Part shown: one piece after another, positions 8,235-62,742 of the stretch
How the letters are laid out: each line of letters opens with the position of its first letter
Numbering within the stretch: position 1 is the stretch's first letter
Assembly: GCA_018653085.1 (NCBI GenBank)
Contig: JABIAY010000072.1
Coordinates: 1-62,881, forward strand
Direction of reading: 5' to 3'
Length of the DNA stretch: 62,881 bases
From: Nitrospina sp.
GTDB taxonomy: Bacteria; Nitrospinota; Nitrospinia; Nitrospinales; VA-1
Made by a program: the position numbers and the translations under genes
The notes under the pieces: model-generated
Told to the model about the DNA's origin: nothing
The model's input: only the letters and a program-made list of their open reading frames with translations
The model's database searches: none

Positions 8235-8300
8235 CCACTAGGCGTGGGGCCAGTGTGCCGTCGCTTTATTTGGCGAACAAAGAATTTATCTCGGCTTAAG
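8235..8300 (+). repeat. Dispersed repeat, CCACTAGGCGTGGGG cap plus core
   Basis: Starts with CCACTAGGCGTGGGGCC and continues through GTCGCTTTATTTGGCGAAC to TCGGCTTAA. It fills the whole divergent gap between tesA and ybbA, so any ybbA promoter must lie in or beside it. Confidence 0.85.
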
Positions 8301-8306
8301 GGAACC

Positions 8307-8981
8307 ATGATTGAAATAACCCAACTAGTAAAAACCCTGCGTGGCGGTGGGCATGCAGTTGAAATTCTAAAATCCCTCGACCTCACGATTCCCACCGGCC
8401 AGTTGATAGCGATCACCGGCGAATCGGGAAGCGGGAAAACCACCCTGCTTAGTCTGATCGCGGGACTGGACACCCCGACAAGCGGACAAATTGTGATCGA
8501 TGGGCAGGATATCACGAAACTCGACGAGGATGAACTCGCTCTCCTGCGCGGAGAAAGGTTCGGCTTCATCTTCCAGAATTTTCATCTCATTCCTACTTTG
8601 ACAGCATTGGAAAACGTGGTGCTCGCGGCGGAACTGAACAACACTCCCGGCGCGACAAAAAAAGCCAGCGACCTGCTGGGCACCGTCGGTCTCAGTGATC
8701 GCCTGCATCATTACCCTGCCCAACTCTCTGGCGGGGAACAGCAACGCCTGTCCTTGGCCCGCGCCTTTATCAACGAGCCGGATATCATTCTCGCCGATGA
8801 ACCCACAGGCAACCTCGACTCTAAAAACAGCGACTGCGTTATTGAGCTCATGCTCGAACTGCATAGAGTAAAACAGGCCACCATCATCCTGGTGACACAC
8901 GAGATGCATGTCGCCGAACGCTCCGAACGCATCCTGACCCTTGCGGATGGGCAGATCATCTCGGACAAACCGAACCCATAA
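8307..8981 (+). CDS. ybbA: ABC transporter ATP-binding protein YbbA-like
   Basis: A 224-residue ATPase with Walker A GESGSGKTTLL (residues 38-48), Q-loop FQNFHLIP, signature LSGGEQQRLSLARA, Walker B IILADEPTGNLDS and the H-loop THEMH. It belongs to the LolD/MacB/YbbA group that drives FtsX-type permeases. The ATG at 8307 is chosen because an earlier in-frame Met at 8244 lies inside the dispersed repeat and would add 21 residues with no homology; AAGGGAA precedes 8307. It overlaps ybbP by ATGA. The gene order with tesA matches E. coli. Confidence 0.92.
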   Translation: MIEITQLVKTLRGGGHAVEILKSLDLTIPTGQLIAITGESGSGKTTLLSLIAGLDTPTSGQIVIDGQDITKLDEDELALLRGERFGFIFQNFHLIPTLTALENVVLAAELNNTPGATKKASDLLGTVGLSDRLHHYPAQLSGGEQQRLSLARAFINEPDIILADEPTGNLDSKNSDCVIELMLELHRVKQATIILVTHEMHVAERSERILTLADGQIISDKPNP

Positions 8982-11536
8982 TGAAACCTTCGCAATTAAA
9001 TCTTCGGCAACTTTTTACATTGGTCCTCTGTGAATCGCGTGGCGCGTGGAGGCGGATGCTGTTTTTTATTCTCTGCATCGCCATAGGGGTCGGCGCGGTG
9101 ATGACGGTGAAAAGTTTTTCCAACCTGGTCGGCGAAACCATACAAGGCGAGGCGAAAGGACTTCTATCCGCCGACCTCGCCATCAAAGGAAGCTGGGAAC
9201 AAACACCGGAAGATCTGGACTATCAGGAAAAGATTTTACCCCCGGAAACCGAGTTCCTCTTTATCAAGGAACTGCATGGCATGGCGCAATTCAAAAATCC
9301 GAAAACCGGAGAAAAATCCGCCTCCCTGATTACCGAACTCAAAGCCGTTCCACTCACCGGCCCGCAATACCCTTTTTATGGAGAATTCAAAAACAAACCG
9401 GAAAAACCGTTGGCAGAGCTATTGACACAAGACGGTGCCGTGGTCGAACCTTCTTTCCTGTTAAAAACCGGTTTGAAGCCGGGAGACAAATTTTCTCTGG
9501 GAAAAGTTGAAGTGCGCATCACCGCAGTGGTGCTCTCAGAACCGGATCGCATTTCAAGAGCATTCAGCATTGGCCCACGCGTATTTATTTCCCGCGCATC
9601 TTTGGACAAATCCGGATTAGTCCAGCCCGGAAGCCGGGTCAAACATCGAACCCTTGTACAACTGCCTTCCGACTTTGCATTGGAAAAGGCCGTGGCACTT
9701 CTGGAACGGGGCTTGAAGGACAAGTCGATTTCCATCCGCACCTATAAGGACATGCAGTCCTCTTTATCCAATTCCATCGAGAGGATGGGCCAGTACCTCG
9801 GCGCACTGGGGGTCATCGCTCTGCTCATGGGAGGAATCGGTGTCGCCATGATCGTTCGCACCTTCATGGCACAGAAACTCGACACACTGGCGATCTTGAG
9901 TTGTCTGGGCGCTTCGTCCCGGACCCTGCTCAAAGTGTACCTTCTCCAATCCATGCTGATGGGTCTGGCAGGCAGTCTTTTGGGCGTGAGCCTCGGGTTC
10001 GCTCTCACATTCCTGCTTCCCTCCAAAATGGAAGGATTGATCAACTTAAAACTGGAGCCGGTCTTCTATTGGATACCCGCTTTGCAATCGCTTGTTCTCG
10101 GTTGCGCGACCACTCTTTTATTTTGCCTGTGGCCTTTGATCCGGGCAGTGAGGACCCGGCCCCTCCGCCTGTTCCGCAGAAATTTTGAGGAAGAAGAACC
10201 CCGATGGGAACGCTGGGTTTCCGGCATAGTGCTTGGACTGGGTTTAGCAACGATGATTTGCTGGCAGGCAGGATCCATAAAACGCGGCATGACTTTTCTT
10301 GCCGCACTGGCGATCTCTGCCGGAGTATTCGCGCTGGCATCCTGGCTTTTGTTAAAACTTTTGAGAGCATTGCCGCCTTCCGGTTCCATGGTCCGCCGTT
10401 ATGGCATGTCCAACCTCATGCGGCCAAACAATCAGGCCACCTCCATCATCACCTGTCTCGGCATGGGCATCATGCTGATCCTTACCGTGCGCCTGGTGCA
10501 AATGGATATGCTGGCCATGCTGGACAAGAACACCGAGATGAGTCCGCCGAATTATTTCTTCATTGATATCCAGCACGACCAAAGACAAACTTTCACTCAG
10601 GTTCTTGATCAGGTCGCACCGGAAGCGGAGCGGACCCTCACGCCTTTGGTACGTTCGCGCCTGCATAGTATTGATGGCAACTTGATAGCAAACTGGACCT
10701 ACAAGGACAAACGGCGGGAAGAATGGTTCATGAACCGCGAGTTCATATTGACCTATATGGCTGGCCCACCGCCAAAAGATAATGAAGTCATCGAAGGAAA
10801 GTGGTGGACTGAGACCCATAACGCCGAAGTCTCCCTGGAACAAGACGCGGCAAAAAGATTGCACGCCAAAATCGGATCAGAACTCATAATCGACATTCAG
10901 GGCATTCTTGTACCCGCCACCGTGACCAGCATCCGCAAGGTAAACTGGCGCAATATGCGCACAAATTTCTACATGATCTATTCGCCGGGAGCCTTGCAAG
11001 GCGCACCGCTTACCTATGTCGCCACGGTCCATGTCCCCGATGCCAAAGAGTTGCAACTGCAACACGCCATTGTCGAGGCCCTGCCTAACATCACCGCCTT
11101 GAGCACACGCGATATTGTCAACACCATTGAATCCACCGTAGCCAAACTGACCACCCTTGTCGATTTTATGTCCGGATTCGCCATCGCGGCCGGACTGTTC
11201 ATCCTCTCCGGTTCCATTGCTTCCACCAAGTTCAGACGCTTGCGGGAATCGGCGATACTTAAAATACTGGGAGCCCGACGCAAAGCAGTCACCGCTATAC
11301 TGGCAATCGAATATGCTACATTAGGAGTCATCGCCGCACTGGTGGGCATTGGGCTGGCGCAAGGGCTTTCCTGGGCGGTGATGAAAACCATGATCAAATC
11401 CGACTGGCACGTCCAACCCATAACCGTTGCCTGGGCGTTTTGTTTCGCAGTTTTGATCACAGTGAGCACCGGAGTTTTAAGTAGTCTGGATGTGATCCGC
11501 AACAAGCCGTTAAAAACTCTCAGGGAATCGGCGTAG
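8981..11536 (+). CDS. ybbP: FtsX-like ABC permease YbbP-like
   Basis: This 851-residue permease has an N-terminal transmembrane helix (residues 24-44), a large periplasmic MacB-like domain, then FtsX cores: three helices around residues 265-390, a second group around 410-470, another periplasmic domain, and a C-terminal FtsX unit (residues 725-845). That is the architecture of YbbP. Together with YbbA it should form an inner-membrane mechanotransmission-type ABC complex rather than a classical importer; its substrate is not established in E. coli either. The TAG stop is followed by degenerate repeat sequence. Confidence 0.9.
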   Translation: MKPSQLNLRQLFTLVLCESRGAWRRMLFFILCIAIGVGAVMTVKSFSNLVGETIQGEAKGLLSADLAIKGSWEQTPEDLDYQEKILPPETEFLFIKELHGMAQFKNPKTGEKSASLITELKAVPLTGPQYPFYGEFKNKPEKPLAELLTQDGAVVEPSFLLKTGLKPGDKFSLGKVEVRITAVVLSEPDRISRAFSIGPRVFISRASLDKSGLVQPGSRVKHRTLVQLPSDFALEKAVALLERGLKDKSISIRTYKDMQSSLSNSIERMGQYLGALGVIALLMGGIGVAMIVRTFMAQKLDTLAILSCLGASSRTLLKVYLLQSMLMGLAGSLLGVSLGFALTFLLPSKMEGLINLKLEPVFYWIPALQSLVLGCATTLLFCLWPLIRAVRTRPLRLFRRNFEEEEPRWERWVSGIVLGLGLATMICWQAGSIKRGMTFLAALAISAGVFALASWLLLKLLRALPPSGSMVRRYGMSNLMRPNNQATSIITCLGMGIMLILTVRLVQMDMLAMLDKNTEMSPPNYFFIDIQHDQRQTFTQVLDQVAPEAERTLTPLVRSRLHSIDGNLIANWTYKDKRREEWFMNREFILTYMAGPPPKDNEVIEGKWWTETHNAEVSLEQDAAKRLHAKIGSELIIDIQGILVPATVTSIRKVNWRNMRTNFYMIYSPGALQGAPLTYVATVHVPDAKELQLQHAIVEALPNITALSTRDIVNTIESTVAKLTTLVDFMSGFAIAAGLFILSGSIASTKFRRLRESAILKILGARRKAVTAILAIEYATLGVIAALVGIGLAQGLSWAVMKTMIKSDWHVQPITVAWAFCFAVLITVSTGVLSSLDVIRNKPLKTLRESA

Positions 11537-11616
11537 CCGCCGATGGCGATAGGCCATAACTCTTGACTGTTAACAACCTTGTTCTCGGCTTAATGAGTCA
11601 TTGCTCACTGCCCTCA
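11537..11616 (+). repeat. Degenerate copy of the dispersed repeat
   Basis: CCGCCGATGGCGATAGGCC just after the ybbP stop and TTCTCGGCTTAATGAG at 11582 match the repeat core, but the hairpin cap is decayed. No separate promoter for the next gene is obvious. Confidence 0.45.
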
Positions 11617-11648: not shown

Positions 11649-12200
11649 ATGAACATTAAAATAATTTTTCTGGTCAGCTTTTTCATCCTGCACTCGGCAG
11701 TTGCCTGGGCCGAACGAGCGCCTTATGAGGCACCGCCCTGGGTACCTCCCCCACCGCCAGAGTCCCGGGTTCATCTGGTTGATAATGGTGATGGAACACT
11801 GACCGAAACCAAGACCCATCTGATGTGGACCCAAAAAGACAGTTATGCCGATCTCGGAAAATGTTTGAACTGGTATCAGGCCACAGACTATGTCGAAAAT
11901 CTTAAGACCGGCGGACATACCGACTGGCGATTGCCCATGGTGTTTGAATACGGAATGATTTATGACAACACAAAAGAAAACAATATGGCATTTGACCACG
12001 ACCCGGACCAGCCCCTGGCCCTGTCGGAACAATTCGCTGATGGCGCGGCCTATTGGTACTGGTCAGCGGAATACGAGGAGACCGACCTGACAGATTGTTG
12101 CACCCGCGTTGCGTATTTCGTAACCGGCCGGGCTTTCTCGCGCAACCTTTCGAACTGCAAACACGGCGGCGTTCGTGCCGTCAGGGATTTGGACCACTAG
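11649..12200 (+). CDS. DUF1566 (Lcl C-terminal-like) secreted protein
   Basis: A 183-residue protein with a signal peptide (MNIKIIFLVSFFILHSAVAWA) and a proline-rich linker. The DUF1566 domain shows TKTHLMWTQKD, DWRLPMVFEYG near residue 95, WYWSAEY and a final VRAVRD. DUF1566 domains resemble the C-type-lectin-like fold and are found on cell-surface proteins; the ligand is unknown. The ATG at 11649 is chosen because GAGGAAACTG lies just upstream; Met codons at 11637 and 11601 give worse signal peptides. The last codons read Asp-His-TAG, with CACTAG supplied by the dispersed repeat. Confidence 0.8.
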   Translation: MNIKIIFLVSFFILHSAVAWAERAPYEAPPWVPPPPPESRVHLVDNGDGTLTETKTHLMWTQKDSYADLGKCLNWYQATDYVENLKTGGHTDWRLPMVFEYGMIYDNTKENNMAFDHDPDQPLALSEQFADGAAYWYWSAEYEETDLTDCCTRVAYFVTGRAFSRNLSNCKHGGVRAVRDLDH

Positions 12201-12230
12201 GCGTGGGGCCGATTGGCAGTGGCTTTATCA
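12194..12230 (+). repeat. Short dispersed repeat between two convergent stops
   Basis: CCACTAGGCGTGGGGCC followed by GTGGCTTTATC. It supplies the TAG of the DUF1566 gene, and its far end contains the TGA of the convergent molybdoenzyme gene, so both genes end inside one copy of about 37 bp. Confidence 0.75.
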
Positions 12231-14885
12231 GGTCTTTTTCACCACAGTAACCACGGTATCCATAAAACGCTGTTGCCCGGCAATCGGGTCACCTTTATTG
12301 GGGATGATCCAATTCGGGTGAACCCCGTTGTCCTTCCACCAAATCCGCTTCAGGTCGGGGTAGCCATCGCGTCCAAAGGGACTTTTCTCCTTACCCGCTG
12401 TCGCGAAGCGACCGTGCGCCCAATGTCCGCAGTGATGGGAAATGGCAATAACGCCGGGGACAACACTTTCCCGGACATCCAGTGTCGTCACAATAGATCC
12501 AATTTCCGAGGTGACTTCGACAGTCTCTTTATCGCTCAGCCCCAGCTTCCCAGCGGTGACAGGATTGATCAGTGCCGGATTTCGATGATAAATCTCGCTC
12601 AAGAACGCATTGCTTTGGGTGCGGGAGTGGCTTTGCATTGCCACCTTGTAGGTCGTCAGGATCAACTCATCGGGTTTAAGGTTTTCATGTTCTGGAATCG
12701 GCATCCACGTTGGCAGTCCGGGAAATCCTTTATCTACGAGGAACTGGGAGTGGATCTCCAAGTAGCCGCTCTTGTTTATTTTGTCGGGCGGAAAGCCTTT
12801 GTATGGGATATTGCCAATCATCTGCCCGACATATTTTTTATACGCTTTTTTGGTGGTTGTGTAGTCTTGTCCCGGTTTCCCTTTCCAAATGACGCCTGTT
12901 TTTTCATCAACAATTGCGCCCTCCAGTTTTTCCGGCGTAAGAACTTTAGCATGCTGTTCATATAAAGGCTGTTGTGTGCGGTCATACCATGCACCATATT
13001 GTTTCATGTAATCGAATCCGCCAGCTTCCTTCACACCCGGCGTGTGTTCACACGCATCTTTAACAAATTCTTCCGCGCTTTGGATCATAAAAGACCCATC
13101 GCCGCCTTGTGCCGGGTCACCCATGCCTATTTGCCTGGCGAGTTCGCAGACCACATCTTGAAAATCCCGTACTTCACCGGGCAGACTCGGAAGTGCCGGC
13201 TGACGAATGTAGTATTCCGGAATTTGATTTTGCGAAACCATGTCTTCCCATGCCCAGCGTTCAAGATAATAGGCATCCGGCAATACCAGATCCGCATATT
13301 TGGTTCCTTCGCCATACCCGACATCAACGGCAATGCTAAAGGGAATCAGCGTTTCGTCTTTGAGGATTTCAATATTTTCCCTGCAATCGCCGTTTGCATA
13401 CGTTGCGTTGTAGCAGTACGTCATATAGATGTGAGGACGCCCATGCGCTCCTTCTTTGATCATGCGCAGAACCTGGTGGCTGGCATGATGAGTCGGCAGG
13501 GCATATCCTTCGCCATCTAAAATTTTAAGCTTTTTGGAGTGTCCTTTCGGTTTTTTGAAAGAGGATTTCCATTTGCCGTTGACCGCCATCAACCGTCCGC
13601 CCTTGGCATTGATGTAACCGCACAATGCTTCAAGCATGAAGATGGCGCGCTCGGTCATAACGCCGTTGTAATGCGCCACCGCTCCGCGATAGGAGATAAT
13701 CGTACCGGGTTTTGCTTTCGCATACTCAATGGCAATCCGTTTGATGGTTTTCGCTGGTACGCCACTGATTGCTTCTGCCCACTCGGGGGTGTAGTCCTTA
13801 ACATGCGCTTCAATGTCGGCAATCGTTGTATTCGTCCACTTCTCGTAAAATGCCTGGTCGTAGAGTTTTTCGGCAATGACGACATGTGTCATCGCCAGCA
13901 CGACTGCAAGATCCGTCCCCGGTTTGATAGGAACCCATTGAGTGGACTTGGCACCCGTCTTATTTAATCGCACATCAAAGGTATACATCGGCACATGTTT
14001 ATTTTTGACCATCTCCATAATCCTTTGGGAAAATGGAATATGAGACGTATGCGCTTCAATGGGATTGGAACCAAAGATCAAGATGCAGTTTGTGTTCAAG
14101 ACATCATTGACGTCATAGTGTTTCCCCCACGTCAACTCTTGGGCGGTCCACTTGCCGCCTTCACAAATCGATGTGTGGTTGCCAATGGTTTTTGTGCCGT
14201 AGGCGGCCAGGAAATACGATTTGATCAGCTTACTTGTTGATCCCTTCATACGACCGTAATGGAACATAAACTCTTCGGGATGGCCTTCGTCGCGAAGCGT
14301 CTTGAGGCCTTTCACCTTTCGACCATCTATCTCACCCCCGCGCACAATCAAGTCAAGAGCTTCCTCCCAACTGATGCGTTCCCATTGGTCATCGCCACGT
14401 TTACTACCCTCTTTACGTTTCATGGGATGGAGCAGGCGGTCCGGGTCTTCCAGATGCTGATGACCGGCTCTTCCTTTAACACAGAGCCTGCCATTGCTTC
14501 GTGGCAGGTTGATATTTCCTTCCATTCTTTTTACCTTACCCGTCCGGTTATCGATCACGGCAATCGCGCCGCACCGGGAGACACATTGCCAGCAGGCGCA
14601 GGGAACAAAACTTTCTCTTCCGTTGGACAATGCGGCGATGTTGATTGCCGGAGGTCTGCCCAAAACATTGGCTTCCGTTTTGTCCTCTTTTGCCCTAAGT
14701 GCAGTCTCCACCTCAATAAATGGAGACTTCTTTAAAGCACGAGTGGCTTGCTTCTCGTCCATGAAGATGTTGCGTAGCACTAATTCTCTTGCAACGAGAT
14801 ACGAAGGGCCAGCAAAGACGATTGCTCCACCCACAACGATTCCACACGCCTTTCTCAAAAAGCTCCTACGGGTATCGGTATCCAT
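12228..14885 (-). CDS. Molybdopterin oxidoreductase catalytic subunit (Psr/Phs/Ttr-like)
   Basis: This 885-residue subunit is the catalytic part of a complex iron-sulfur molybdoenzyme. It has a Tat signal (RRSFLRK, residues 6-12), so it acts in the periplasm. It also has a [4Fe-4S] site C98-x2-C101-x3-C105-x29-C135 and a likely Mo-ligating cysteine in SICEGGKW (C241). Large molybdopterin-binding and C-terminal MoCo-dinucleotide domains follow. Relatives are polysulfide, thiosulfate and tetrathionate reductases and arsenate reductase; the substrate cannot be assigned from motifs. GGGAGG lies upstream of the ATG. It is the last gene of a three-gene operon (FeS, NrfD, catalytic) that lies next to modABC. 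Confidence 0.88.
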   Translation of the reverse strand: MDTDTRRSFLRKACGIVVGGAIVFAGPSYLVARELVLRNIFMDEKQATRALKKSPFIEVETALRAKEDKTEANVLGRPPAINIAALSNGRESFVPCACWQCVSRCGAIAVIDNRTGKVKRMEGNINLPRSNGRLCVKGRAGHQHLEDPDRLLHPMKRKEGSKRGDDQWERISWEEALDLIVRGGEIDGRKVKGLKTLRDEGHPEEFMFHYGRMKGSTSKLIKSYFLAAYGTKTIGNHTSICEGGKWTAQELTWGKHYDVNDVLNTNCILIFGSNPIEAHTSHIPFSQRIMEMVKNKHVPMYTFDVRLNKTGAKSTQWVPIKPGTDLAVVLAMTHVVIAEKLYDQAFYEKWTNTTIADIEAHVKDYTPEWAEAISGVPAKTIKRIAIEYAKAKPGTIISYRGAVAHYNGVMTERAIFMLEALCGYINAKGGRLMAVNGKWKSSFKKPKGHSKKLKILDGEGYALPTHHASHQVLRMIKEGAHGRPHIYMTYCYNATYANGDCRENIEILKDETLIPFSIAVDVGYGEGTKYADLVLPDAYYLERWAWEDMVSQNQIPEYYIRQPALPSLPGEVRDFQDVVCELARQIGMGDPAQGGDGSFMIQSAEEFVKDACEHTPGVKEAGGFDYMKQYGAWYDRTQQPLYEQHAKVLTPEKLEGAIVDEKTGVIWKGKPGQDYTTTKKAYKKYVGQMIGNIPYKGFPPDKINKSGYLEIHSQFLVDKGFPGLPTWMPIPEHENLKPDELILTTYKVAMQSHSRTQSNAFLSEIYHRNPALINPVTAGKLGLSDKETVEVTSEIGSIVTTLDVRESVVPGVIAISHHCGHWAHGRFATAGKEKSPFGRDGYPDLKRIWWKDNGVHPNWIIPNKGDPIAGQQRFMDTVVTVVKKT

Positions 14886-16725: not shown

Positions 16726-16982
16726 TAGCCCCTTGGCAGGGGAGGCAGATAGCAATGGCTCGTTAAGCCGAGCTAACTTTTTGTTCGCCACCCTCTAGCG
16801 AGGGAGGCAAATAGCAATAGCTTATTAAGCCGCCAACACGATTGCTAGCCAGAGAAAGCTATTGCATACTGGCCTCACGCCTAGCCCACTCCCGTGGGTG
16901 GGAATATAGCAATTACTTTTTGAGCCGAGATAGCCATTTGCTAGCTTGACAGGCTATTGCCAGTCGGCACCACGCCTAGTGG
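16726..16982 (-). repeat. Cluster of repeat copies between the molybdoenzyme and mod operons
   Basis: At least three adjoining copies, read on the minus strand. Cores (GAGCCGAGATAG, TTAAGCCGAGCTAAC, TTAAGCCGCC) alternate with caps CCCCTTGGCAGGGG, CCACTCCCGTGGG and GGCACCACGCCTAGTGG. The last cap supplies the TAG of modC. The gap 16600-16975 holds nothing else I can recognise apart from the Shine-Dalgarno of the iron-sulfur gene. Confidence 0.8.
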
Positions 16983-18736: not shown

Positions 18737-19624
18737 TTATTCCTCTATAAAACCATAACCATAGGACTGCATGATTGTTTTTGCCGCAGAACTTTTTAAA
18801 TATGCCAGAAACTGTTTTGCGGCAAAATTGGCAAGTCCTTGTTTTAATAAAATGGCCTGCTGGGAAACTGGATCGTGCAGACTCAGAGGCACCTCCCACC
18901 GACTTCCCTTAAGCCTGAAGCGTGGATCTTCCACCTGTGATTTGGCGACCAATCCCAGCCCTGCGTTTCCGGTAGCGACAAACTGCAGGGTCTGGGAAAT
19001 GTTTTCTCCCTGCACCAGAAACGGTCGTAGTTTTTTCCAGAGGCCCAACCGTTCCAGAACCTGCTCTGCCGCCTTGCCATAGGGTGCGGTTTTCGGGTTG
19101 GCTATCGCCAGCTTGCCCTTGTCCATTTTTTTTAAAGATTCTACTCCCTGTATTTTCTCCGGGTCTGCGCTCCATAAAACCAAAGCCCCTATGGCATAGG
19201 TGAACCGAGTACCCATTACACCTATCCCTTCCTGTTCCAGCAGGACCGGCCTTTTTGCATCCGCCGCCAGCAAAACATCAAAGGGCGCACCGTGTCGGGA
19301 CTGGGCATACAGCTTGCCGGTCGATGCCGAAATCAGGATCAGCGTGTTTCCCGTATCTTTTTCATAGCGTTTGGCAATTTCCTTGAGCGGATTCAAAAAA
19401 TTGGACGCGACCGCAACATGAACGTCTTCCGCCCAAGCTGATGCCGACACACCTAGAAGACAAACCACCATCCATGCCCCGAGCCTGCATATTACATGAA
19501 TACTAAAATGTTTAACCCCCCTAGCCCCCCTTATCAGGGGGGAATTGATCGTCCCCCTGATAAGGGGGATTGAGGGGGTTGCTTTTTCTGTCCTGGCACA
19601 GGCCAACGCTCTCTTATTTCCCAT
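18737..19624 (-). CDS. modA: Molybdate-binding protein ModA with repeat-altered N-terminus
   Basis: The mature part is a normal periplasmic ModA: VHVAVASNFLNPLKEIA after the signal cleavage site SAWAED, then STGKLYAQ oxyanion-contact and FAAKQFLAYLKS near the end. The ATG at 19624 has a good AAGGGAA, but the first 36 codons include a translation of a dispersed palindromic repeat (IPLIRG and SPLIRG, residues 19-32). The signal peptide hydrophobic core comes only at residues 48-63. An internal ATG at 19471 would leave a signal peptide without a basic N-region. I therefore keep the long start. Export efficiency of this odd leader is unknown. Confidence 0.9.
   Translation of the reverse strand: MGNKRALACARTEKATPSIPLIRGTINSPLIRGARGVKHFSIHVICRLGAWMVVCLLGVSASAWAEDVHVAVASNFLNPLKEIAKRYEKDTGNTLILISASTGKLYAQSRHGAPFDVLLAADAKRPVLLEQEGIGVMGTRFTYAIGALVLWSADPEKIQGVESLKKMDKGKLAIANPKTAPYGKAAEQVLERLGLWKKLRPFLVQGENISQTLQFVATGNAGLGLVAKSQVEDPRFRLKGSRWEVPLSLHDPVSQQAILLKQGLANFAAKQFLAYLKSSAAKTIMQSYGYGFIEE
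19514..19580 (-). repeat. Palindromic CCCCCTTATCAGGGGG repeat inside modA 5' end
   Basis: Two inverted arms, each AACCCCC...CCCCCTTATCAGGGG, facing each other. The same half-unit occurs at 24825, 30229, 33927 and 36791. Here it lies in the modA coding frame. Confidence 0.8.
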
Positions 19625-20856: not shown

Positions 20857-20955
20857 CTCGTTGAGCCAAAATAACTCTTTTACCCCTGCGGGGCACGAAG
20901 ACTGAGGAAGAATATCACGGCTACCAAAAAACATGGCTTATTACCCGCAGAGGCT
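20857..20955 (+). repeat. Dispersed repeat, CCCCTGCGGGG/ATATCACGGCTA module
   Basis: Second copy of the module at 4577, beginning TTGAGCCAAAATAACTC and containing ACCCCTGCGGGGCACGAAG and ATATCACGGCTA. It lies at the 5' side of the tRNA pair. The rest of the gap to 21207 holds no gene I can support. Confidence 0.7.
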
Positions 20956-24133: not shown

Positions 24134-24366
24134 CCCCCCCCACTAGGCGTGGGGCCAGCGTGCCGCCGCTTTATCTGGCGAGCAAAAAGTTGGCTCGGCT
24201 CAAAAAGTCTTTGCCGTATTCCCTCCCACGGGAGTGGGCTAGGCGTGGGGCCAGTGTGCAGTCGCTTTATCTGGCTGGCAAAAAGTTGACTCGGCTCAAA
24301 AAACCATTGCGAGTTGCCTCCCCTGCTAAGGGGCCACTTATGAAAAAAGTCTGTATCAATTAACCC
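24109..24366 (+). repeat. Tandem repeat copies flanked by a 28-bp direct duplication of the mreB end
   Basis: 24109-24136 (last codons and stop of mreB) is repeated exactly at 24339-24366. Between them lie two tandem copies of the dispersed repeat (24137-24236 and 24237-24338), each with AGGCGTGGGGCCAG, a CTTTATCTGGC core and CGGCTCAAA. The joint between them is CCACGGGAGTGGG and the right end is CCCCTGCTAAGGGG. Confidence 0.9.
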
Positions 24367-24739: not shown

Positions 24740-24923
24740 CCGCCAGCGTGACGCTGAACCCAAATGGCAATCGCTTTATTTGGCGGGCAAAACGTTATCT
24801 CGGCTGAATAGAGCCTTGGCTCAACCCCCTCAATCCCCCTTATCAGGGGGAATATTAAAAGTGTTGCGCTTGAGGGCTTGGCCTGCTTGACGGGTAATGC
24901 AGTACCGGCCCCACGCCTAGTGG
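24737..24923. repeat. Composite dispersed repeat with several caps
   Basis: CGCCAGCGTGACGCTG, then the core TCGCTTTATTTGGCGGG to TCGGCTGAA, then AATCCCCCTTATCAGGGGG, ending in GGCCCCACGCCTAGTGGG in inverse orientation. A near-identical right half lies at 36795-36890. Confidence 0.8.
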
Positions 24924-26102: not shown

Positions 26103-26240
26103 CCACTCGGCGCCGGCGAGCCGCCGGTGGCAGATTGCAAAAACTCGTTGGGCCGAGTCAGCTCTTTGCTAGCCAGAAAAAGCTATTGCAAATTGGGTCC
26201 AGCGGCACGCTGGCGGCGGTTCGCCGGTCACGCTGGACCT
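26101..26240. repeat. Dispersed repeat with CCAGCG palindromes
   Basis: CCACTCGGCGCCGG, then the core in inverse sense (GGGCCGAGTCAGCTCTTTGC), then GTCCAGCGGCACGCTGG and a GGTCACGCTGGACC end, lying between the ferredoxin and NifU-like genes. Confidence 0.7.
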
Positions 26241-30154: not shown

Positions 30155-30225
30155 GCGGGAGACCCAAGTTTAAAAAAACCCTTAATGTAAATCACCCCGG
30201 CCCTCTTTAAAAAAGAGGGAGAAAA

Positions 30226-30341
30226 ACCAACCCCCCTAGCCCCCCTTATCAGGGGGGAATGGGGCAAGAGCCCATCATACCGAGACAACTTTTTTCCAGC
30301 CGATTATAGTTATTGCCCATTACTACCGGGCGTTGCCCGGC
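30226..30341 (-). repeat. Dispersed repeat overlapping the sulfite-oxidase-like gene end
   Basis: CCCCCTTATCAGGGGG cap, core ACCGAGACAACTT, and CCGGGCGTTGCCCGG cap, the last also found at 52810. The minus-strand gene stop (30310) and its final residues lie within it. Bases 30190-30225 hold an AT-spaced CCCTCTTT/AAAGAGGG stem. Confidence 0.75.
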
Positions 30342-33837: not shown

Positions 33838-34036
33838 AGAAAACCCCCTCTTTGAAAAAGGGGGAGTAAAATCCAACCCTCCCTCAGTCCCTCCCTATGA
33901 AGGGAGGGAAATAACATAACAAGGCAACCCCCCTAGCCCCCCTTATCAGGGGGGGGACTGGGCAAGGGCTCGTTAAGCCGAGATAACTTCTTGCTCGCCA
34001 AATAAAGCGACGGCACACTGGCCCCACGCCTAGTGG
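33838..34036 (-). repeat. Dispersed repeats between dapF and the MMPL gene
   Basis: A CCCTCTTTGAAAAAGGGGGA stem, a CCTCCCTATGAAGGGAGG stem, CCCCCTTATCAGGGGG, then the core TTAAGCCGAGATAACTTC...GCCAAATAAAGCGACGG and the cap GGCCCCACGCCTAGTGG directly against the MMPL stop. The gap 33662-33837 holds nothing else recognisable. Confidence 0.8.
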
Positions 34037-36769: not shown

Positions 36770-36952
36770 TTGCTAGCAGGAAAAAGCAACCCCCTCAATC
36801 CCCCTTATCAGGGGGAATATTAAAAGCATTGCGCTTGAGGGCTTGGCCGACTTGACGGGCAATGCAGTACTGGCCCCACGCCTAGTGGTTGAGCCGAGAC
36901 AACTCTTTGCTCGCCAAGAAAGCTATTGCTAGTTGCCTGCGGAGGCACTCCG
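36770..36952. repeat. Dispersed repeats between the MMPL and pagL-like genes
   Basis: AACCCCCTCAATCCCCC with TTATCAGGGGG, then ATTGCGCTTGAGGGCTTGG, then the cap GGCCCCACGCCTAGTGG, then a second core (GAGCCGAGACAACTCTTTGC) ending in CTGCGGAGGCACTCCG against the pagL-like stop. Confidence 0.8.
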
Positions 36953-39745: not shown

Positions 39746-39872
39746 TACCACGAGTACGGAGAACCTCCGCTGGCAAACTGCAATGTCTTTATTTTTCGGG
39801 CAAATATTTACTCGGCCCAACGAACCATTGCCAGTTGGCCCCACGCCGAGTGGACGCCGAGACAACCTACCG
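39746..39872. repeat. Dispersed repeat before nadK
   Basis: CGGAGAACCTCCG hairpin, core TCTTTATTTTTCGGGCAA and ACTCGGCCCAACGA, then TTGGCCCCACGCCGAGTGG in inverse sense. A copy with hairpins at both ends. Confidence 0.75.
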
Positions 39873-40774: not shown

Positions 40775-40845
40775 CCACTAGGCGTGGGGCCGGTGTGCCG
40801 CCGCTTTATTTGGCGAGCAACGAGTTGCCTCGGCACAATCAAGTG
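40775..40845 (+). repeat. Dispersed repeat after nadK
   Basis: CCACTAGGCGTGGGGCC, core CGCTTTATTTGGCGAGCAA to CCTCGGCACAA. CCACTAG occurs twice in tandem at its left border (40768-40781). Confidence 0.85.
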
Positions 40846-40866
40846 CTTGCCCAGTTCCCTTACGAT

Positions 40867-41760
40867 ATGAATCAAAATATCATTGCCTGCGGTCATAAAA
40901 AAGATATTGGAACCCGTGTGGTTTTATGGCACGAAGGCGATGGGTTTAATTGCCCTAACAAGAGGGGCCGGTCCAACTGTTCCCATCACGACTCCAAGCT
41001 CAATGACGCACCATCCAGAAAAGATTCGGCCTATAAAATCCTAAAACCCGAATCGGCATACAGGGAACTGGTTCAGCACGTCCACCAGTTTGTCCTGCAT
41101 TATGATGGATGCTACAGCTCCCATCATTGTCACCAACTGATGGCAAAGAGTCCCTTCAAGGGGAGTCACTTCTATCTCGATCTCGATGGCACCCTTTACC
41201 AGACCTGTGACTTGTACTGGAAAACCAATACCGCACCTGCCGATGACCGGCAAGGGAACGAAAGGGCTATTCATGTCGAAATAGCAAACCTTGCGTGGGA
41301 AGCTCTGGCCTGTGAATCCGAATGGCTCCCTACCCCTCGCGATAAATACCAAAAGAAAAGAGGGCAGTGGCTACTGGAACTTCCCGATGCCTACCGCAAA
41401 AAACTTCAGACCACCGACTTCAAAGTCACCCCGTCACGCGCTTACGGTGAAAGGGGATACTTCAGCAGAAAAATAAATGGTCGAGTAGTGCGTATGTGGG
41501 ATTTTACCGAGGAACAATATCAAGCCCTGACTAAACTCTGCATCGGGGTCAACCACCTTCTGCCCAAAATTAAACTACAAGTACCCTTCGACAAAAAAAC
41601 CGGTCGGCACCCTCTCGACAGATTAAAAAACTACTCTAAGTTTTCCGGCATCCTGGGTCACGCCCATGTGCAAAAAGGCGAAAATGGAGTCGAGTGCAAA
41701 TACGATCCCGGCTCAGCCTTCAACTGGGCTCGATTAAAAAAAGCCTTCCACCGCCGCTAG
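40867..41760 (+). CDS. N-acetylmuramoyl-L-alanine amidase (Amidase_2-like)
   Basis: A 297-residue protein with an Amidase_2/PGRP-like zinc fold: FVLHYDGCYSSHHCH near residue 74, FYLDLDGTLYQTCD, NERAIHVEIAN, and GHAHVQKGEN...YDPGSAFNW near the C-terminus with likely zinc ligands. Typical family enzymes cut the MurNAc-L-Ala bond of peptidoglycan. I see no signal peptide, and the ATG at 40867 follows directly on repeat sequence, so cytoplasmic recycling (AmpD-like) is possible. Longer than AmpD, with a middle insertion of about 90 residues. Ends in CGC-TAG at a repeat. Confidence 0.72.
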   Translation: MNQNIIACGHKKDIGTRVVLWHEGDGFNCPNKRGRSNCSHHDSKLNDAPSRKDSAYKILKPESAYRELVQHVHQFVLHYDGCYSSHHCHQLMAKSPFKGSHFYLDLDGTLYQTCDLYWKTNTAPADDRQGNERAIHVEIANLAWEALACESEWLPTPRDKYQKKRGQWLLELPDAYRKKLQTTDFKVTPSRAYGERGYFSRKINGRVVRMWDFTEEQYQALTKLCIGVNHLLPKIKLQVPFDKKTGRHPLDRLKNYSKFSGILGHAHVQKGENGVECKYDPGSAFNWARLKKAFHRR

Positions 41761-41778
41761 GCGCGGGGCCAGTGGTGG
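41757..41778 (+). repeat. Short repeat-cap fragment after the amidase gene
   Basis: CTAGGCGCGGGGCCAGTGG, containing the amidase TAG; the core is missing. Confidence 0.6.
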
Positions 41779-43412: not shown

Positions 43413-43861
43413 AACGGAATTCCATTTTTCGGGATGAACTCCCGGGAGAAAAGAAGAGCATCATCAACCTACTGATGACCGGCTACATTGTTGTCATTTC
43501 CTGCCTGGGCTATGCCGCGTTCTTTCTCTACATCCAACTGGGACAGGTTGAGAGGATTGTGGGGACCATGGATACCCAGACCTTAAAGCCCGATCAAATC
43601 GAGCTGTTAAAGGACCGGATCGTTCGCAGTGCCGTGCAACTGAAAAATGAAATGATCGGGATGGCCATTGTCGGCACTCTGGTTTGTATCATTGGCGGAT
43701 TCTATACCGTCAGCATGATTATAAAACCGCTTAGAAAACTGGTACGGTTCGCGGAGGAACAAGGAACCACCGAGCTTCCCGAATTTAAATCCAATACCGA
43801 AATCAAACAGTTGGCAACAGCCCTCACCCGATTGACGGAAAACCTGAAACAACCCCACTAG
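43409..43861 (+). CDS. Small two-helix membrane protein with HAMP-like domain
   Basis: A 150-residue protein with helices at about residues 20-42 and 75-98, a periplasmic segment between them, and a HAMP-like linker afterwards (MIIKPLRKLVRFAEEQGTTELP). No kinase, cyclase or chemoreceptor output follows, so it lacks an output domain. It may pass a signal to another protein, perhaps the M48 peptidase it is coupled to. Ends Pro-His-TAG with the TAG from the dispersed repeat. Confidence 0.75.
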   Translation: MKRNSIFRDELPGEKKSIINLLMTGYIVVISCLGYAAFFLYIQLGQVERIVGTMDTQTLKPDQIELLKDRIVRSAVQLKNEMIGMAIVGTLVCIIGGFYTVSMIIKPLRKLVRFAEEQGTTELPEFKSNTEIKQLATALTRLTENLKQPH

Positions 43862-43955
43862 GCGTGGGGCCAATGTGCCATCGCTTTATTTGGCTAGCAA
43901 AGAGTTGTCTCGGCTCAAAGAGTCCTTGCTATCTGCCACCCCTGCTAAGGGAGAG
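43857..43955 (+). repeat. Dispersed repeat, near-consensus copy
   Basis: CCACTAGGCGTGGGGCC, core ATCGCTTTATTTGGCTAGC, TTGTCTCGGCTCAAAGAG, right cap CCCCTGCTAAGGG. A good reference copy. It supplies the HAMP gene stop. Confidence 0.9.
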
Positions 43956-44151
43956 CTTTGCATAAGTCGAAAAAGCTCAAAAGCGAGATGCTTCTACCCC
44001 TTCGAGGCACGAAGACTAAGGTGAAATATCACGGCGGCTCAGCATGACAAACCAAGCCCCACAGGTCGTCTTCGCGAGCCGCAAAGCGGCATGGCGATCC
44101 AGAGTTTCGCTGGATTGCTTCACTTCGTTCGCAAAGACGACTTATGCAAAG
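43956..44151. mobile_element. MITE-like element with 14-bp inverted ends
   Basis: Perfect terminal inverted repeats CTTTGCATAAGTCG and CGACTTATGCAAAG. Inside are the CCCCTTCGAGGCACGAAG/ATATCACGGC module and a GCGAGCCGCAAAGCGGC unit with CAGAGTTTCGCTGG. No open frame. It lies directly after a core-repeat copy; a TAGTGG remnant lies to its right (44161-44166). Confidence 0.75.
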
Positions 44152-47312: not shown

Positions 47313-47417
47313 CCCCCACTAGGCGTGGGGCCAGTGTGCCATCGCTTTATCTGGCTAGCAATCGTATTCTCGGCTCAAAGAGCGATTGCTTATCTGCCTC
47401 CCCTGCTAAGGGGAGAG
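47313..47417 (+). repeat. Dispersed repeat, full copy with both caps
   Basis: CCCCACTAGGCGTGGGG, core ATCGCTTTATCTGGCTAGC, TTCTCGGCTCAAAGAG and right cap CCCCTGCTAAGGGG. The right cap contains the TAG of the DUF6178-like gene on the minus strand (CCC-CTT-AG frame). Confidence 0.88.
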
Positions 47418-50237: not shown

Positions 50238-50295
50238 GATAACGGTATTTGGGCGCTGAAACGAATACCGATATGACGTAAGAAAGGAGATCTTG

Positions 50296-50547
50296 ATGGC
50301 AACCAAGAAAAAAGCAAAGAAGAAAGCTACAAAGAAAAAAGCTACGAAGAAAAAGGTAGCTAAGAAAAAAGTAGCTAAGAAAAAAGTAACAAAGAAAAAA
50401 GCTACAAAGAAAAAAGCTAAGAAAAAAGTAACAAAGAAAAAAGCTACAAAGAAGAAAGCTACAAAGAAGAAAGCTAAGAAGAAAGTAACAAAGAAAAAAG
50501 CTACAAAGAAGAAAGCTAAGAAGAAAGCTAAAGCTAGAAAAAGATAA
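50296..50547 (+). CDS. Lysine-rich histone H1-like protein
   Basis: An 83-residue protein made almost entirely of KKKAT, KKKAK and KKKVA units after MATKKKAKK and ending KAKARKR. About two thirds is lysine; there are no acidic or aromatic residues. This is the composition of histone H1 tails and of bacterial H1-like nucleoid proteins (Hc1, AlgP/BphP3). GGAG lies six bases before the ATG. Likely DNA- or RNA-binding. Its repeated codons make it prone to length change by slippage. Confidence 0.85.
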   Translation: MATKKKAKKKATKKKATKKKVAKKKVAKKKVTKKKATKKKAKKKVTKKKATKKKATKKKAKKKVTKKKATKKKAKKKAKARKR

Positions 50548-50689
50548 GAAGGGTAGTTTAATTTTCTTTTCAGCCAATGCTGGATGTAGTGAACTGACTC
50601 TCAATTCATTTTCGAACGTATTAACTCATATCGTTTCAGCGCCCAATAAGTACCGCCACTTCGTCCGCTAACCACCTGTTTTTATAGCC

Positions 50690-52686: not shown

Positions 52687-52826
52687 CGTGATATTTCCTC
52701 ACTTGTCTCGTGCCCCGAAGCGGGTACTTTAAAAAGAGGGGTCCATTGAAGCGACCCCTTAAGCCGAGACAACTCTTTGCTCGCCAAATAAAGCTATTGC
52801 CCATTTCCTCCGGGCGTTGCCCGGGG
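52687..52826 (-). repeat. Two dispersed repeat modules downstream of the M23 gene
   Basis: On the minus strand: CCGGGCAACGCCCGG cap against the M23 stop, core ATAGCTTTATTTGGCGAGC and TTGTCTCGGCTTAA, then the GGGGCACGAGACAAG...ATATCACGGC module (52687-52728), which matches 4577 and 20857. Confidence 0.75.
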
Positions 52827-53979: not shown

Positions 53980-54075
53980 GGTTGCGGAGAGACTCCGCTG
54001 GCGACTGGCAATAGATTTTTACCGCTAGCAACCGCTTTTCTCGGCTTAACGAGTTCTTGCTCATTGCCTCCATAA
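53980..54075 (+). repeat. Dispersed repeat between the M23 and SPL-like genes
   Basis: CGGAGAGACTCCG hairpin, ACTGGCAATAGATTTTTACC, TTCTCGGCTTAACGAG. It occupies the divergent promoter region. Confidence 0.7.
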
Positions 54076-55267: not shown

Positions 55268-55286
55268 TTGAAATTCCAGAGATACT

Positions 55287-61600: not shown

Positions 61601-61689
61601 GGTCCACAGGAGAAACCTCAATACTAAAACATAACTTCCCAGCCAACCACCACTACACCACCACTAGGCGTGGGGCCAGCGCGCAATAA
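58618..61689 (+). CDS. Fusion: ArsP/DUF318-like permease plus FG-GAP repeats and ASPIC/UnbV
   Basis: A 1023-residue fusion. Residues 1-355 are a multi-helix permease of the DUF318/SO_0444 type with a cysteine motif in VCVNCVAPIAKGM. After a Thr/Pro linker come about seven FG-GAP/VCBS calcium-type blades (ASGDFNLDGWADIAV, MVDLNNDGWLDIFL, FADLNRDGFPDIV, SDINADGNPDLIIG, IDTADFNNDLIPDIYL, FADLDNDEWQDLFV, YIDIDRDGDLDIIA), then an ASPIC/UnbV domain. The FG-GAP part should be periplasmic, as a propeller fixed to a transporter. The last residues (TRRGASAQ) come from the repeat. A seven-codon frame at 58598 overlaps the start. Confidence 0.85.
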   Translation: MTRNRKFIILLIFMIGVTSTFWLVSRYPALDTKAALSGSEAFEDPLTHQAHFHAPRKAGFVTQVAYTALNWYETNWCGMAFGLVLAAGFYTLLKYVPRQSSDRRFRNSFMGMFVGTPLGVCVNCVAPIAKGMYEAGSKMETALAVMFSSPTLNIIVLTMLFSIFPFYMAVMKLVATFILILIIVPLISEKTRTTPENQACEIDPATTCDLSLEQKSWAMAFKSASQDYWKSLCYIFIRTVPLMFLAGALGALASHLWSFDQLIGAPVNLASLSLLSFMGTLMPLPIAFDLMLAQAMMMSGLSPAFVTTLVFTFGTFSIYSAMIVARTFSFFLAVKLFAIVFAIGIVLGYAANGFIEYRHVKWLTQYDQIISTPDRTTSTLSTRPEVKVPEKIDSPMPPIILKQENLEVRALAHRSRNKQTDKPFTQRLGADMGITYSNSLTPKTFLDPLFFGRGIASGDFNLDGWADIAVATNNGFELYQNMKGTRFKKVFSGVEALNGKQGINIAMVDLNNDGWLDIFLTTFNEGNFLVLNPLPDDGKVKVLPVPNGGALLTSASAFADLNRDGFPDIVNGNYFLGVLTRKPVGQAADQWILNHNLEFKSHPLDGIPGQTHSVLLSDINADGNPDLIIGNDYRVGDTYYLGINEEFKKIRQQDGIIPLTTQNTMSIDTADFNNDLIPDIYLANIGMSRGLDVVSNIFGDTMQNSGLDFCDTGKSVLDKKTCHQFNQLTTLLNPEKQDITEHCTRLENPQWIKECMATRMILVATSRNIPSLCKKIPFALNRNYCQKFFQAEHLDLSRENEIPMQTQFNLLLSGQADHTFKDVSEQTKISTAEWSWNARFADLDNDEWQDLFVVNGVPITQEFASNNFFHNQNGKSFIPAEAEFGLDDRDHSSSYTYIDIDRDGDLDIIANTLYGPFKVYTNNNTQGNSVTLKLIDEQGNRFCLGCTVIIRYGSDGERHQMREIKTGGGFHSYDAPIAHFGLGEYETISQIEITWSTGETSILKHNFPANHHYTTTRRGASAQ

Positions 61690-61804
61690 CTCTATCTGGC
61701 AAACAAAGAGTTATCTCGGCTTAATGAGGTTTTACCCCCTCTTTCTCAAAGAGGGTTGGGGTGATTTACCACAAGTTTTTGTCAGTTGGCCCCACGCCAA
61801 GTGG
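61660..61804. repeat. Dispersed repeat with caps at both ends in inverse orientation
   Basis: CCACTAGGCGTGGGGCC at the left and TTGGCCCCACGCCAAGTGG at the right, with the core ACTCTATCTGGCAAAC to TCTCGGCTTAATGAG and a CCCTCTTTCTCAAAGAGGG stem inside. The arrangement looks like a MITE with 17-bp imperfect inverted ends. Confidence 0.85.
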
Positions 61805-62254: not shown

Positions 62255-62255
62255 G

Positions 62256-62597
62256 ATGAAAAAAGAATCCGATGCTGTGCTTCTTAGAATTTTTATCGGT
62301 GAGTCCGACAAGTATGAAGGCGTGCCGCTTTCCAGGTATCTGGTAGAATTTTTTAAGAAGGAAGGTTTGGCAGGAGCCACCGTTTTAAGAGGAATCAGCG
62401 GATTCGGGAAATCCAGCAAACTGCATACGACATCCATATTAAGGTTGTCTGATGACCTCCCCATCGTGATAGAAGTAGTGGACCGGAAAGAAAATATCGA
62501 ACGCATCAAACCAAAACTGGATAACGTGATCGAAGAAGGACTGATCACTGAAGAAGAGGTTAAAATAATCCTCTACGAAGGCCGGCCAGCCCACTAG
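62256..62597 (+). CDS. DUF190 family protein
   Basis: A 113-residue protein with LRIFIGESDKYEGVPLSRYLVEFFKKEGLAGATVLRGISGFG near the N-terminus, SDDLPIVIEVVDRKENIE in the middle: a PII-like ferredoxin fold. DUF190 genes often lie beside crcB and may tune fluoride export, though this is not proven. One base separates it from crcB. Ends Ala-His-TAG with CACTAG from the repeat. Confidence 0.9.
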   Translation: MKKESDAVLLRIFIGESDKYEGVPLSRYLVEFFKKEGLAGATVLRGISGFGKSSKLHTTSILRLSDDLPIVIEVVDRKENIERIKPKLDNVIEEGLITEEEVKIILYEGRPAH

Positions 62598-62742
62598 GCG
62601 TGGGGCCAGTGTGCCATCGCTTTTTCTGGCTAGCAAAGAGTTGTCTCGGCTTAACTAGCTATTGCAATCTGCCTCCCCTGTCAAGGGGTGCTAGGCGTGG
62701 GGCCAATGTATGCTTCCCCCTGATAAGGGAGATCGAGGAGAT
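62592..62742 (+). repeat. Two dispersed repeat copies after DUF190
   Basis: CCCACTAGGCGTGGGGCC, core ATCGCTTTTTCTGGCTAGC, TTGTCTCGGCTTAAC, CCCCTGTCAAGGGG; then a second shorter copy from CTAGGCGTGGGGCCAATG to a TCCCCCTGATAAGGGAGA hairpin. Confidence 0.85.

What the first reader, a model, noticed from the sequence alone, without database searches (positions are those of the whole stretch)
8235..62742. Dispersed repeat family whose hairpin caps sit on stop codons
About 20 loci share a core (CTTTATTTGGCTAGCAAAG, then TCGGCTTAA), but the ends differ: CCCCAC-TAGGC-GTGGGG, CGGAG-N3-CTCCG, CCCCTGCTAAGGGG, CCCCCTTATCAGGGGG, CCGGGCGTTGCCCGG. In both orientations a cap abuts or supplies a stop: 12200, modC 16976, HAMP 43861, DUF190 62597 and amidase 41760 use the element TAG; lipocalin 3623, ferredoxin 26102, MMPL 34037, PagL 36953, the radical SAM gene 4684 and M23 52827 end within a few bases of a cap; DUF6178 47406 uses a TAG in the other cap. 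A constant core with swapped palindromic ends precisely placed at gene 3' ends suggests a mobile element aimed at stops or terminator hairpins, or a 3'-end RNA module. I know of no such described family.
Basis: partly seen in the sequence, partly recalled or inferred. Interest (0 to 1): 0.85.

Follow-up and report, generated by a model that had tools for sequence, protein, structure and literature searches.

The report
Hairpin-capped repeats abutting stop codons
Nitrospina-like bacteria carry many copies of a short mobile repeat with a fixed middle and exchangeable hairpin ends, and these copies often sit exactly at the end of a gene, touching or even supplying its stop codon; nothing we found explains how that exact spot is chosen.

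Summary
The window holds 23 matches to a ~98-nt element: hairpin cap, core, hairpin cap. Named relatives are Nitrospina/Nitrospinaceae MAGs; the family is in 15 of 15 congeners and 0 of 15 genomes outside the genus. It is mobile on an evolutionary scale: some sites are empty in relatives, three with clean junctions against an 86.5%-identical genome, while at other gene ends several species carry differently capped elements. Stop preference is real and unusually exact: GC-rich hairpins begin 0 nt after 40 of 734 stops (12 times the per-position background), or 18 of 396 in the part not chosen around hits; two genomes outside the genus give 0 of 180 and 3 of 183. Caps at 0 nt mostly follow native stops; where the cap's own TAG is the stop, the C-terminus usually differs from orthologues. 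No associated transposase was found among four families searched. Best reading: a REPIN/MITE-like non-autonomous element of a new variety, with an unexplained targeting rule.

The parts
4500..4560 (-). element, degenerate; the radical SAM gene stop at 4684 is followed at gap 0 by another cap (CGGAGTGCCTCCG)
   Evidence: HMM match E 2.9e-4; stop context
8235..8301 (+). element with A cap CCACTAGGCGTGG, right half not matched; not at a stop
11545..11615 (+). element; stop of 9056-11536 lies in the loop of the cap ATCGGCG-TAGC-CGCCGAT
12194..12232 (+). left cap and arm; TAG of the cap is the stop of 11649-12200
16736..16982 (-). three consecutive element copies; TAG of the outermost cap is the modC-like gene's stop (16976); 4 relatives compared have no element within 150 nt of that stop
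24140..24226 (+). element, A cap left and D cap (CCCACGGGAGTGGG) right; 6 nt after the MreB stop; no element within 150 nt of that stop in 4 relatives
24239..24326 (+). second tandem element, right cap CCCCTGCTAAGGGG
24758..24824 (+). element with B-type cap (CCAGCGTGACGCTG)
26126..26201 (-). element, caps CCAGCGTGCCGCTGG and CCGGCGGCTCGCCGG; the ferredoxin stop (26102) abuts the composite cap at gap 0
30252..30330 (-). element, cap CCGGGCAACGCCCGG
33947..34036 (-). element; A cap starts 0 nt after the MMPL stop (34037); other caps at the same stop in several congeners
36888..36937 (-). element; its cap CGGAGTGCCTCCG starts 0 nt after the PagL stop (36953)
39772..39853 (+). element, I cap on the left, A-type cap inverted on the right
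40775..40859 (+). element 0 nt after CCACTAG, the stop of the NAD-kinase gene; no element at this stop in 5 relatives nor in G012
41754..41766 (+). cap only (CCGCTAGGCGCGG, pairing kept by a double change); its TAG is the amidase stop
43855..43944 (+). element whose cap TAG is the stop of 43409-43861; C-terminus shorter than in orthologues; empty in 5 relatives, but G012 has an A cap after its own stop here
47316..47412 (+). element; TAG in its right cap (CCCCTTAGCAGGGG on the - strand) is the DUF6178 stop (47406); differently built elements near this stop in several relatives
52736..52815 (-). element, cap CCGGGCAACGCCCGG about 2 nt after the M23 stop (52827)
54001..54071 (+). element with GCGGAGAGACTCCGC cap
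61661..61740 (+). element read into by the 58618-61689 gene (stop TAA inside the element)
61773..61804 (-). partial element (cap and arm)
62591..62680 (+). element; TAG of the cap is the DUF190 stop (62597)

Best explanation
These are short, non-autonomous mobile DNA elements of the REPIN/MITE type. A conserved core of about 65 nt lies between two terminal hairpins. What is kept at the ends is the hairpin rather than its sequence, so caps of many families can be exchanged. Shown: dispersal, insertion at sites that are empty in relatives, cap interchange, retained pairing in variable caps, and enrichment at 3' ends with exact abutment to stops or a gene end supplied by a cap that carries TAG. 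Inferred: an enzyme encoded elsewhere recognises the folded single-stranded hairpin ends (as Y1 transposases are held to do with IS200/IS605 or REPIN ends), and insertion or retention is favoured at the stop codon. Selection against insertions that leave a gene without a prompt stop would explain why the cap frame carrying TAG is the one seen. Selection alone does not explain the spike at 0 nt.
For: 83 copies in 453,587 nt not chosen around hits (183 per Mb); 43 of 79 intergenic copies within 15 nt of a stop against 18.4 expected under random placement in the same gaps (19.2 in the rerun), and 39 of 63 against 20.5 when only copies and placements at least 80 nt from a start are kept. A caps: 31 at -7 (own TAG), 20 at 0, 6 at +3, of 120. 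Six other cap patterns also show gap 0: B 4 of 36, Crc 2 of 62, Drc 2 of 24, Erc 2 of 11, G 3 of 36, H 1 of 16; I, J, K, L, Lrc, C, D, E and inverted A show none. Sequence-blind hairpin test: 40 of 734 stops (12x), G012 13 of 430 (8x), G013 4 of 96 (6.6x); outside the genus 0 of 180 and 3 of 183. Empty/filled pairs. Cap A 96.7% paired, each of its four pairs with one or two double changes. Own-genome nearest neighbours 0.83 against 0.57 shuffled in G000. Left and right cap types occur in many combinations.
Against: No candidate enzyme: Y1_Tnp, IS110 and TnpB-type domains absent from G000, RVT_1 absent from 9 of 11 congeners searched. No consistent target-site duplication in the few clean junctions. 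Own-genome clustering is not above shuffling in G012 (0.29 against 0.28), G003 (0 of 6) or clearly in G013 (0.21, shuffled mean 0.08, maximum 0.37). Stop proximity is not above chance in G003 (5 of 12 against 4.4, p 0.43) or G008 (2 of 2 against 1.3) and is 0 of 1 in G005; gap 0 is 0 in G002, G005, G008 and G010 (182 stops together). Compensatory evidence is modest: double changes in cap A are 7 cells of about 330, and when all 3' partners are slid by 1-3 columns the counts of double changes stay similar (12 pairs against 10-14), though paired cells fall from 85.5% to 32-48%. Several sites hold some element in more than one species, which also fits long-term retention.
Confidence: 0.62

Rival explanations
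1. Ancient 3'-UTR RNA modules: the caps act as termination, stability or translation-termination hairpins, are kept by selection at the stop, and change sequence by compensatory drift and gene conversion.
For: Caps stay paired while varying; at the MMPL stop about 10 of 14 genomes have, by eye, a hairpin at or within a few nt of the stop, of differing sequence, 2 have a degenerate one and 2 none; the ferredoxin site has an element in G000, G013, G003 and G002.
Against: Some sites are filled in G000 only among the relatives compared (16976, MreB 24133, 40774); nearly half of the A caps are not at stops (56 of 120); arrays of 2-3 units are absent from G012; cap types are discrete and shared genome-wide, unlike drift at one site; none of 120 A caps is followed by a T-rich stretch.
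Confidence: 0.2
2. Plain tolerance: elements insert at random and survive only where harmless, which happens to be gene 3' ends; stop codons supplied by caps are by-products.
For: Cap-internal TAG is in frame in 31 cases, as selection for a prompt stop predicts; C-termini of that class differ from orthologues (3 of 24 pairs the same length, against 202 of 271 for other genes).
Against: Spacer 1-8 nt after a stop should be as tolerant as 0 nt, yet gap 0 holds 40 hairpins against 2 to 8 at each of gaps 1 to 8 (gap -1 holds 11); 43 of 79 against 18.4 within the same intergenic gaps, little changed when the neighbourhood of starts is excluded.
Confidence: 0.13
3. A DNA target motif such as CTAR explains the stops: the element inserts 3' of CTAG/CTAA, which occurs at many stops.
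For: Gap-0 stops are TAG 29, TAA 18, TGA 3 of 50, against 202, 302, 230 of 734, and C precedes 33 of 50 against 222 of 734; 7 of 120 A caps directly follow a CCACTAG-like string.
Against: Away from stops only 1 of 56 A caps follows CTAR; TGA stops are used too.
Confidence: 0.12

Closest known systems
REPINs / REP sequences with RAYT transposases (PMC3116915 and PMC3733652, passages seen)
   Same: Many intergenic copies, two palindromes flanking a spacer, tandem clusters of near-identical units, non-autonomous behaviour. In E. coli many REPs lie within 15 nt of a stop (PMC12306157, passages seen: 260 of 496 in an earlier study it cites, 446 of 4,072 by its own count).
   Different: No RAYT found in G000; the two RAYT-like genes of congeners lack these caps in the ~3.3-kb loci fetched; cap sequence is not constant and no constant tetranucleotide tag was seen; abutment at exactly 0 nt rather than within 15 nt.
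Bacterial MITEs (Correia/NEMIS, RUP, ERIC, YPAL; PMC2229807 and PMC3733652, passages seen)
   Same: Small, dispersed, intergenic, both orientations, no transposase of their own.
   Different: No fixed terminal inverted repeat and no consistent target-site duplication seen; ends are exchangeable hairpins.
CGTC-tagged palindromes and Rickettsia palindromic elements (PMC3733652, passages seen)
   Same: Palindromic repeats that seem to lack a dedicated transposase.
   Different: CGTC repeats carry a fixed tetranucleotide; RPEs are found in-frame inside genes, here the elements lie between genes and at gene ends.
G-rich heptamer repeats of Xanthomonas and Nostoc (PMC4692102, passages seen)
   Same: Preferentially within 50 bp of stop codons, sometimes overlapping them.
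   Different: Tandem heptamers thought to form quadruplexes, not hairpin-capped units.

Membership tests
REPIN (RAYT-mobilised) | two inverted REP palindromes with a spacer, many dispersed copies | tested here: inconclusive
   Two terminal hairpins and a core, many copies, but the two hairpins are of different families in most typed copies
REPIN (RAYT-mobilised) | RAYT (Y1_Tnp) gene in the genome, flanked by the repeat | tested here: not met
   0 matches in G000; the two congener genes (G005, G013) have none of nine cap patterns in their loci; L099 (G005) has one weak core-like HMM match, E 5e-3, about 0.6 kb from the domain
GTAG/CGTC-tagged REP | constant tetranucleotide at one foot of the hairpin | tested here: not met
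   Bases before A caps are variable
MITE | constant terminal inverted repeats | tested here: not met
   Ends belong to at least nine cap families
MITE | target-site duplication | tested here: inconclusive
   Few clean junctions; no shared duplication
Intrinsic transcription terminator | hairpin followed by a T-run | tested here: not met
   0 of 120 A caps have 5 or more T in an 8-nt stretch within 12 nt after the cap; other caps not counted
Known Rfam RNA family | match at gathering threshold | tested here: not met
   Only three tRNAs in the window
Integron attC sites | cassette organisation with RYYYAAC/GTTRRRY core sites | tested here: inconclusive
   Read by eye only: GCTTAAC occurs in some cores and not in others; flanking genes are syntenic across species; definition recalled; no integrase search

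The most novel reading that the evidence does not exclude
Insertion is guided by translation termination itself, for example through an RNA intermediate or an mRNA end made at the stop codon, so that the element enters directly 3' of whichever stop (TAG, TAA, rarely TGA) the ribosome uses, independent of cap sequence.
Probability: 0.08. Interest if true: 0.9.

Novelty: new variant of a known kind. Interest (0 to 1): 0.62.

Why it matters
It is a genus-wide family that rewrites gene ends. In the stretches not chosen around hits, 13 of 396 genes take their stop from an A cap and 23 more have an A cap or GC-rich hairpin starting at 0 nt; in the whole, hit-enriched sample the figures are 31 and 51 of 734. 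Interchangeable hairpin ends suggest recognition by shape, and the 0-nt spike at stops is a targeting rule for which I know no accepted mechanism. Both can be tested in close strains.

Tried and rejected
Rfam: nothing but tRNAs in the window. Plasmid and phage collections (blastn of 121 bases) and IMG/VR (one exact degenerate pattern): no match. Four domain families (Y1_Tnp, RVT_1, IS110, TnpB-type) gave no candidate shared by the genomes that hold the element; RVT_1 is present twice in G000 and in G004 and G006, but absent from 9 of 11 congeners searched. CTAR as a DNA target: rejected as the sole cause. A fold of the whole element: single-copy folds differ from copy to copy, and the alignment supports the caps more than the core. 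A CTAG on both sides of one copy (L033) was not general (read by eye). The print mixed orientations and was replaced for MMPL and 9056; the DUF190 site was then only used through.

Numbers and rows to note: the A-cap count is 116 (14 nt of flank required) and 120. The notebook says 826 kb for the G000 sample; the right figure is 822,629 nt, of which 20 stretches were chosen around hits and 20 were at arbitrary positions on contigs that also appear in the hit list. Alignment A1 used 83 of the 107 near-full copies; copies with large inserts and some others were left out. Cap typing used 158 of 178 matches; 35 left and 57 right ends stayed untyped. Gene calls are my own; at least the calls at 50296-50547 and 62681-62878 (over a tRNA) look false. 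The gap-0 figures differ by definition: 40 (maximal stems), 50 (any stem starting there), 51 (A pattern or stem).
Full report
What was checked. The core string gives 11 near matches in the window where 0.01 are expected, and the repeat finder lists a family of up to 98 nt in both orientations. Starting from one window copy, an iterated nhmmer search gave 119 non-overlapping matches in 431,923 nt (window plus 20 stretches of the same genome chosen around hits), 23 of them in the window.

Where it lives. Relatives found by the DUF6178 protein are Nitrospina and Nitrospinaceae MAGs. The window genome G000 has 3.16 Mb in 78 contigs. The element occurs in 15 of 15 congeners and in 0 of 15 genomes outside the genus, 3 of the same family and 12 of the same order. 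G013 is taken to be LS_NOB (LFLA01), G012 SRR3967319_bin.10, and G003, G008 and G010 the records CALAGQ01, JABHBK01 and JACNKA01; these names rest on equal contig lengths. It was not found in the plasmid, phage or IMG/VR collections with the queries used.

Anatomy. A full copy reads: cap hairpin, arm, core (CTTT..TGGC, GCAA, CTCGGC..AA, TTGC), arm, cap hairpin, about 98 nt in all; tandem arrays have the same period. Left caps are mostly CCAC-TAGGC-GTGG (A), also CCAGCG-TGA-CGCTGG (B) and others. Right caps are CCCCT-GNNA-AGGGG (C), CCCAC-GGGA-GTGGG (D), CCCTC-GCTA-GAGGG (E) and others. Of 158 copies typed (of 178), 93 have left cap A, combined with at least eight different right caps; 35 left and 57 right ends could not be typed. 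At stops the left end faces the gene in 72 cases and the right end in 27. In an alignment of 83 of 107 near-full copies, cap A is paired in 96.7% of cells and each of its four pairs has one or two sequences with both sides changed; core helices pair in 75-93% with few double changes. Shuffles of the 3' letters never reach the observed pairing (0 of 500), but sliding the partners leaves the number of double changes much the same, so the compensatory signal itself is modest. RNAalifold predicts only the cap and one short core helix.

Stops. With my own codon-score gene calls, the part of the sample not chosen around hits (window plus 20 stretches, 453,587 nt) holds 83 copies, 79 of them placeable between genes, 1 inside a gene and 3 at edges. 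43 of 79 lie within 15 nt of a stop against 18.4 expected from random placement in the same gaps; 4 against 9.3 lie within 15 nt of a start. Leaving out copies and placements near starts changes little: 40 of 71 against 18.8 at 40 nt, 39 of 63 against 20.5 at 80 nt. By genome: G013 13 of 29 against 5.1; G010 3 of 5 against 1.1 (p 0.026); G002 3 of 3 against 0.9 (p 0.019); G003 5 of 12 against 4.4 (p 0.43); G008 2 of 2 against 1.3; G005 0 of 1 against 0.2.

Exactness. In 822,629 nt of G000, 120 A caps were found. 31 have their own TAG as the stop of a called gene, 20 start exactly after a stop, 6 start three nt after, 11 more lie elsewhere within -20 to +60, and 52 are further away. Cap patterns B, Crc, Drc, Erc, G and H show gap 0 as well, in 14 cases together; the other patterns (I, J, K, L, Lrc, C, D, E, inverted A) do not. 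A test that ignores cap sequence counts GC-rich hairpins (stem of 4 or more, loop 3-5) by start position after each stop. Gap 0 has 40 for 734 stops against a mean of 3.3 per position at gaps 8-40; the part not chosen around hits 18 of 396 against 1.85; G012 13 of 430 against 1.58; G013 4 of 96 against 0.61; G003 1 of 55; G002, G008, G010 and G005 0 of 64, 55, 30 and 33. Outside the genus G017 has 0 of 180 and G016 3 of 183 against 1.61 (Poisson p 0.22). Gap -1 is raised too, 11 in G000 and 4 in G016. Orthologue comparison: genes with a non-A hairpin at gap 0 have the same C-terminal length in 11 of 11 pairs, A cap at gap 0 in 11 of 17, stop inside an A cap in 3 of 24, all other genes in 202 of 271 (pairs count several genomes per gene). 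So one class mostly follows native stops, and in the other the C-terminus has usually changed. Gap-0 stops are TAG 29, TAA 18, TGA 3 of 50, against 202, 302, 230 of 734, with C before the stop in 33 of 50. Yet only 1 of 56 A caps away from stops follows CTAR, so a plain DNA motif is not enough.

Mobility. Against G012 (86.5% identity over aligned blocks) an array of three units (L031), an array of two (L035) and a single copy inside an intrinsic-terminator hairpin (L102) are absent, with short clean sequence in their place. The L112 and window 40775 copies also lack a counterpart, but with altered flanks. could compare 16 places out of 138 clusters; the remaining ones hold elements or pieces of them in both genomes, with different parts, or differ by more than the element. 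In the syntenic window region, 16976, 24133 and 40774 are filled in G000 only among the relatives compared; 43861 is filled in G000 and, after its own longer C-terminus, in G012, and empty in 5 others; 45496 is filled in G013 and G003 only. The output was cut, so genes between about 26.5 and 39 kb were not read there. At the MMPL stop 14 genomes were read: by eye about 10 have a cap within a few nt, L135 and L139 a degenerate one, L130 and L140 none. Near the DUF6178 stop, HMM matches lie in L082, L085, L086 and L087 and, about 240 nt away, in L083; L084 and L088 have only cap-like remains, L081 and L089 nothing clear. Orientation is opposite in L086 and L087. Copies in G000 have their nearest neighbour in G000 in 0.83 of cases against 0.57 shuffled; G012 0.29 against 0.28; G013 0.21 against 0.08 (maximum 0.37); G003 0 of 6; G010 2 of 4. 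This fits a recent burst in G000; for the others it says little.

Enzyme. Y1_Tnp is absent from G000 and from 5 of 7 other genomes searched; the two hits (G005, G013) lack the caps nearby, though the G005 locus has one weak core-like match. IS110 and TnpB-type domains are absent from G000; among the seven congeners searched each was found in one, G010 (IS110 also weakly, below cut-off, in G016). RVT_1 occurs in G000, G004 and G006 but not in 9 other congeners searched. Other recombinases or nucleases were not searched.

How it may work. Best supported is a non-autonomous element whose folded ends are recognised by shape, moved by an enzyme that remains unidentified; this step is inferred. Selection then removes insertions that leave a gene reading on, which would explain the frame of the cap-supplied TAG. 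The spike at 0 nt after stops is left over: neutral tolerance predicts no difference between 0 and 1-8 nt. Possible causes are targeting linked to termination, selection for a hairpin touching the stop, or conversion tracts that carry a stop-cap junction from one gene to another. I cannot decide among them.

Literature. Nine searches, on Nitrospina repeats, REP/RAYT and stop codons, palindromic miniature elements and stops and double-hairpin elements (59), listed no paper that by title, abstract start or the passages seen describes this family; only open-licence papers were searched. Passages were seen of PMC12306157, PMC3733652, PMC2229807, PMC4853749, PMC4692102 and PMC3116915. REPs within 15 nt of stops and their effect on translation are reported for E. 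coli (PMC12306157). REPIN tandem clusters and a two-palindrome 'clover' fold are described in PMC3116915.

Noticed in passing
window 4601-4638, 20881-20918, 43995-44032 (- strand); 12 matches to one pattern in the G000 sample: A second short repeat (GTGATATTyTTCCT..AGC.TTCgTGCCCCGnAGGGGTA) lies in some cases inside cores and cap loops of the first family, for example in G012 inside a CCCTTGC/TAAGGGG cap.
   Followed up: partly
L082 near 4577-4646 and 10323-10392; L049 7636; L087 3014: Other cores (such as ..TCAAGCAACC..TTTAAAGCCAGCC..) carry the same caps and arms, so caps seem shared between core types.
   Followed up: no
window after 43944; L032, L043, L046 right flanks: A further repeat, GGAGACCTTTGCATAACCCG or similar, follows the right cap in several copies.
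   Followed up: no
window 19500-19541, 24809-24850, 30215-30256, 33912-33953, 36774-36815 (and inverted at 19545-19588): Another palindromic repeat with CCCCCTTATCAGGGGG.
   Followed up: no
window 50284-50559: Array of a 15-nt (sometimes 12-nt) repeat in a region where an ORF is listed on the - strand.
   Followed up: no
L048 (G000 contig C12, 11,349 nt): The contig ends inside a tandem copy of the element, so the family may break assemblies.
   Followed up: no
G000:C5:905-1546 and C70:11996-12547: Two reverse-transcriptase-like genes in G000, absent from 9 of 11 congeners searched.
   Followed up: no
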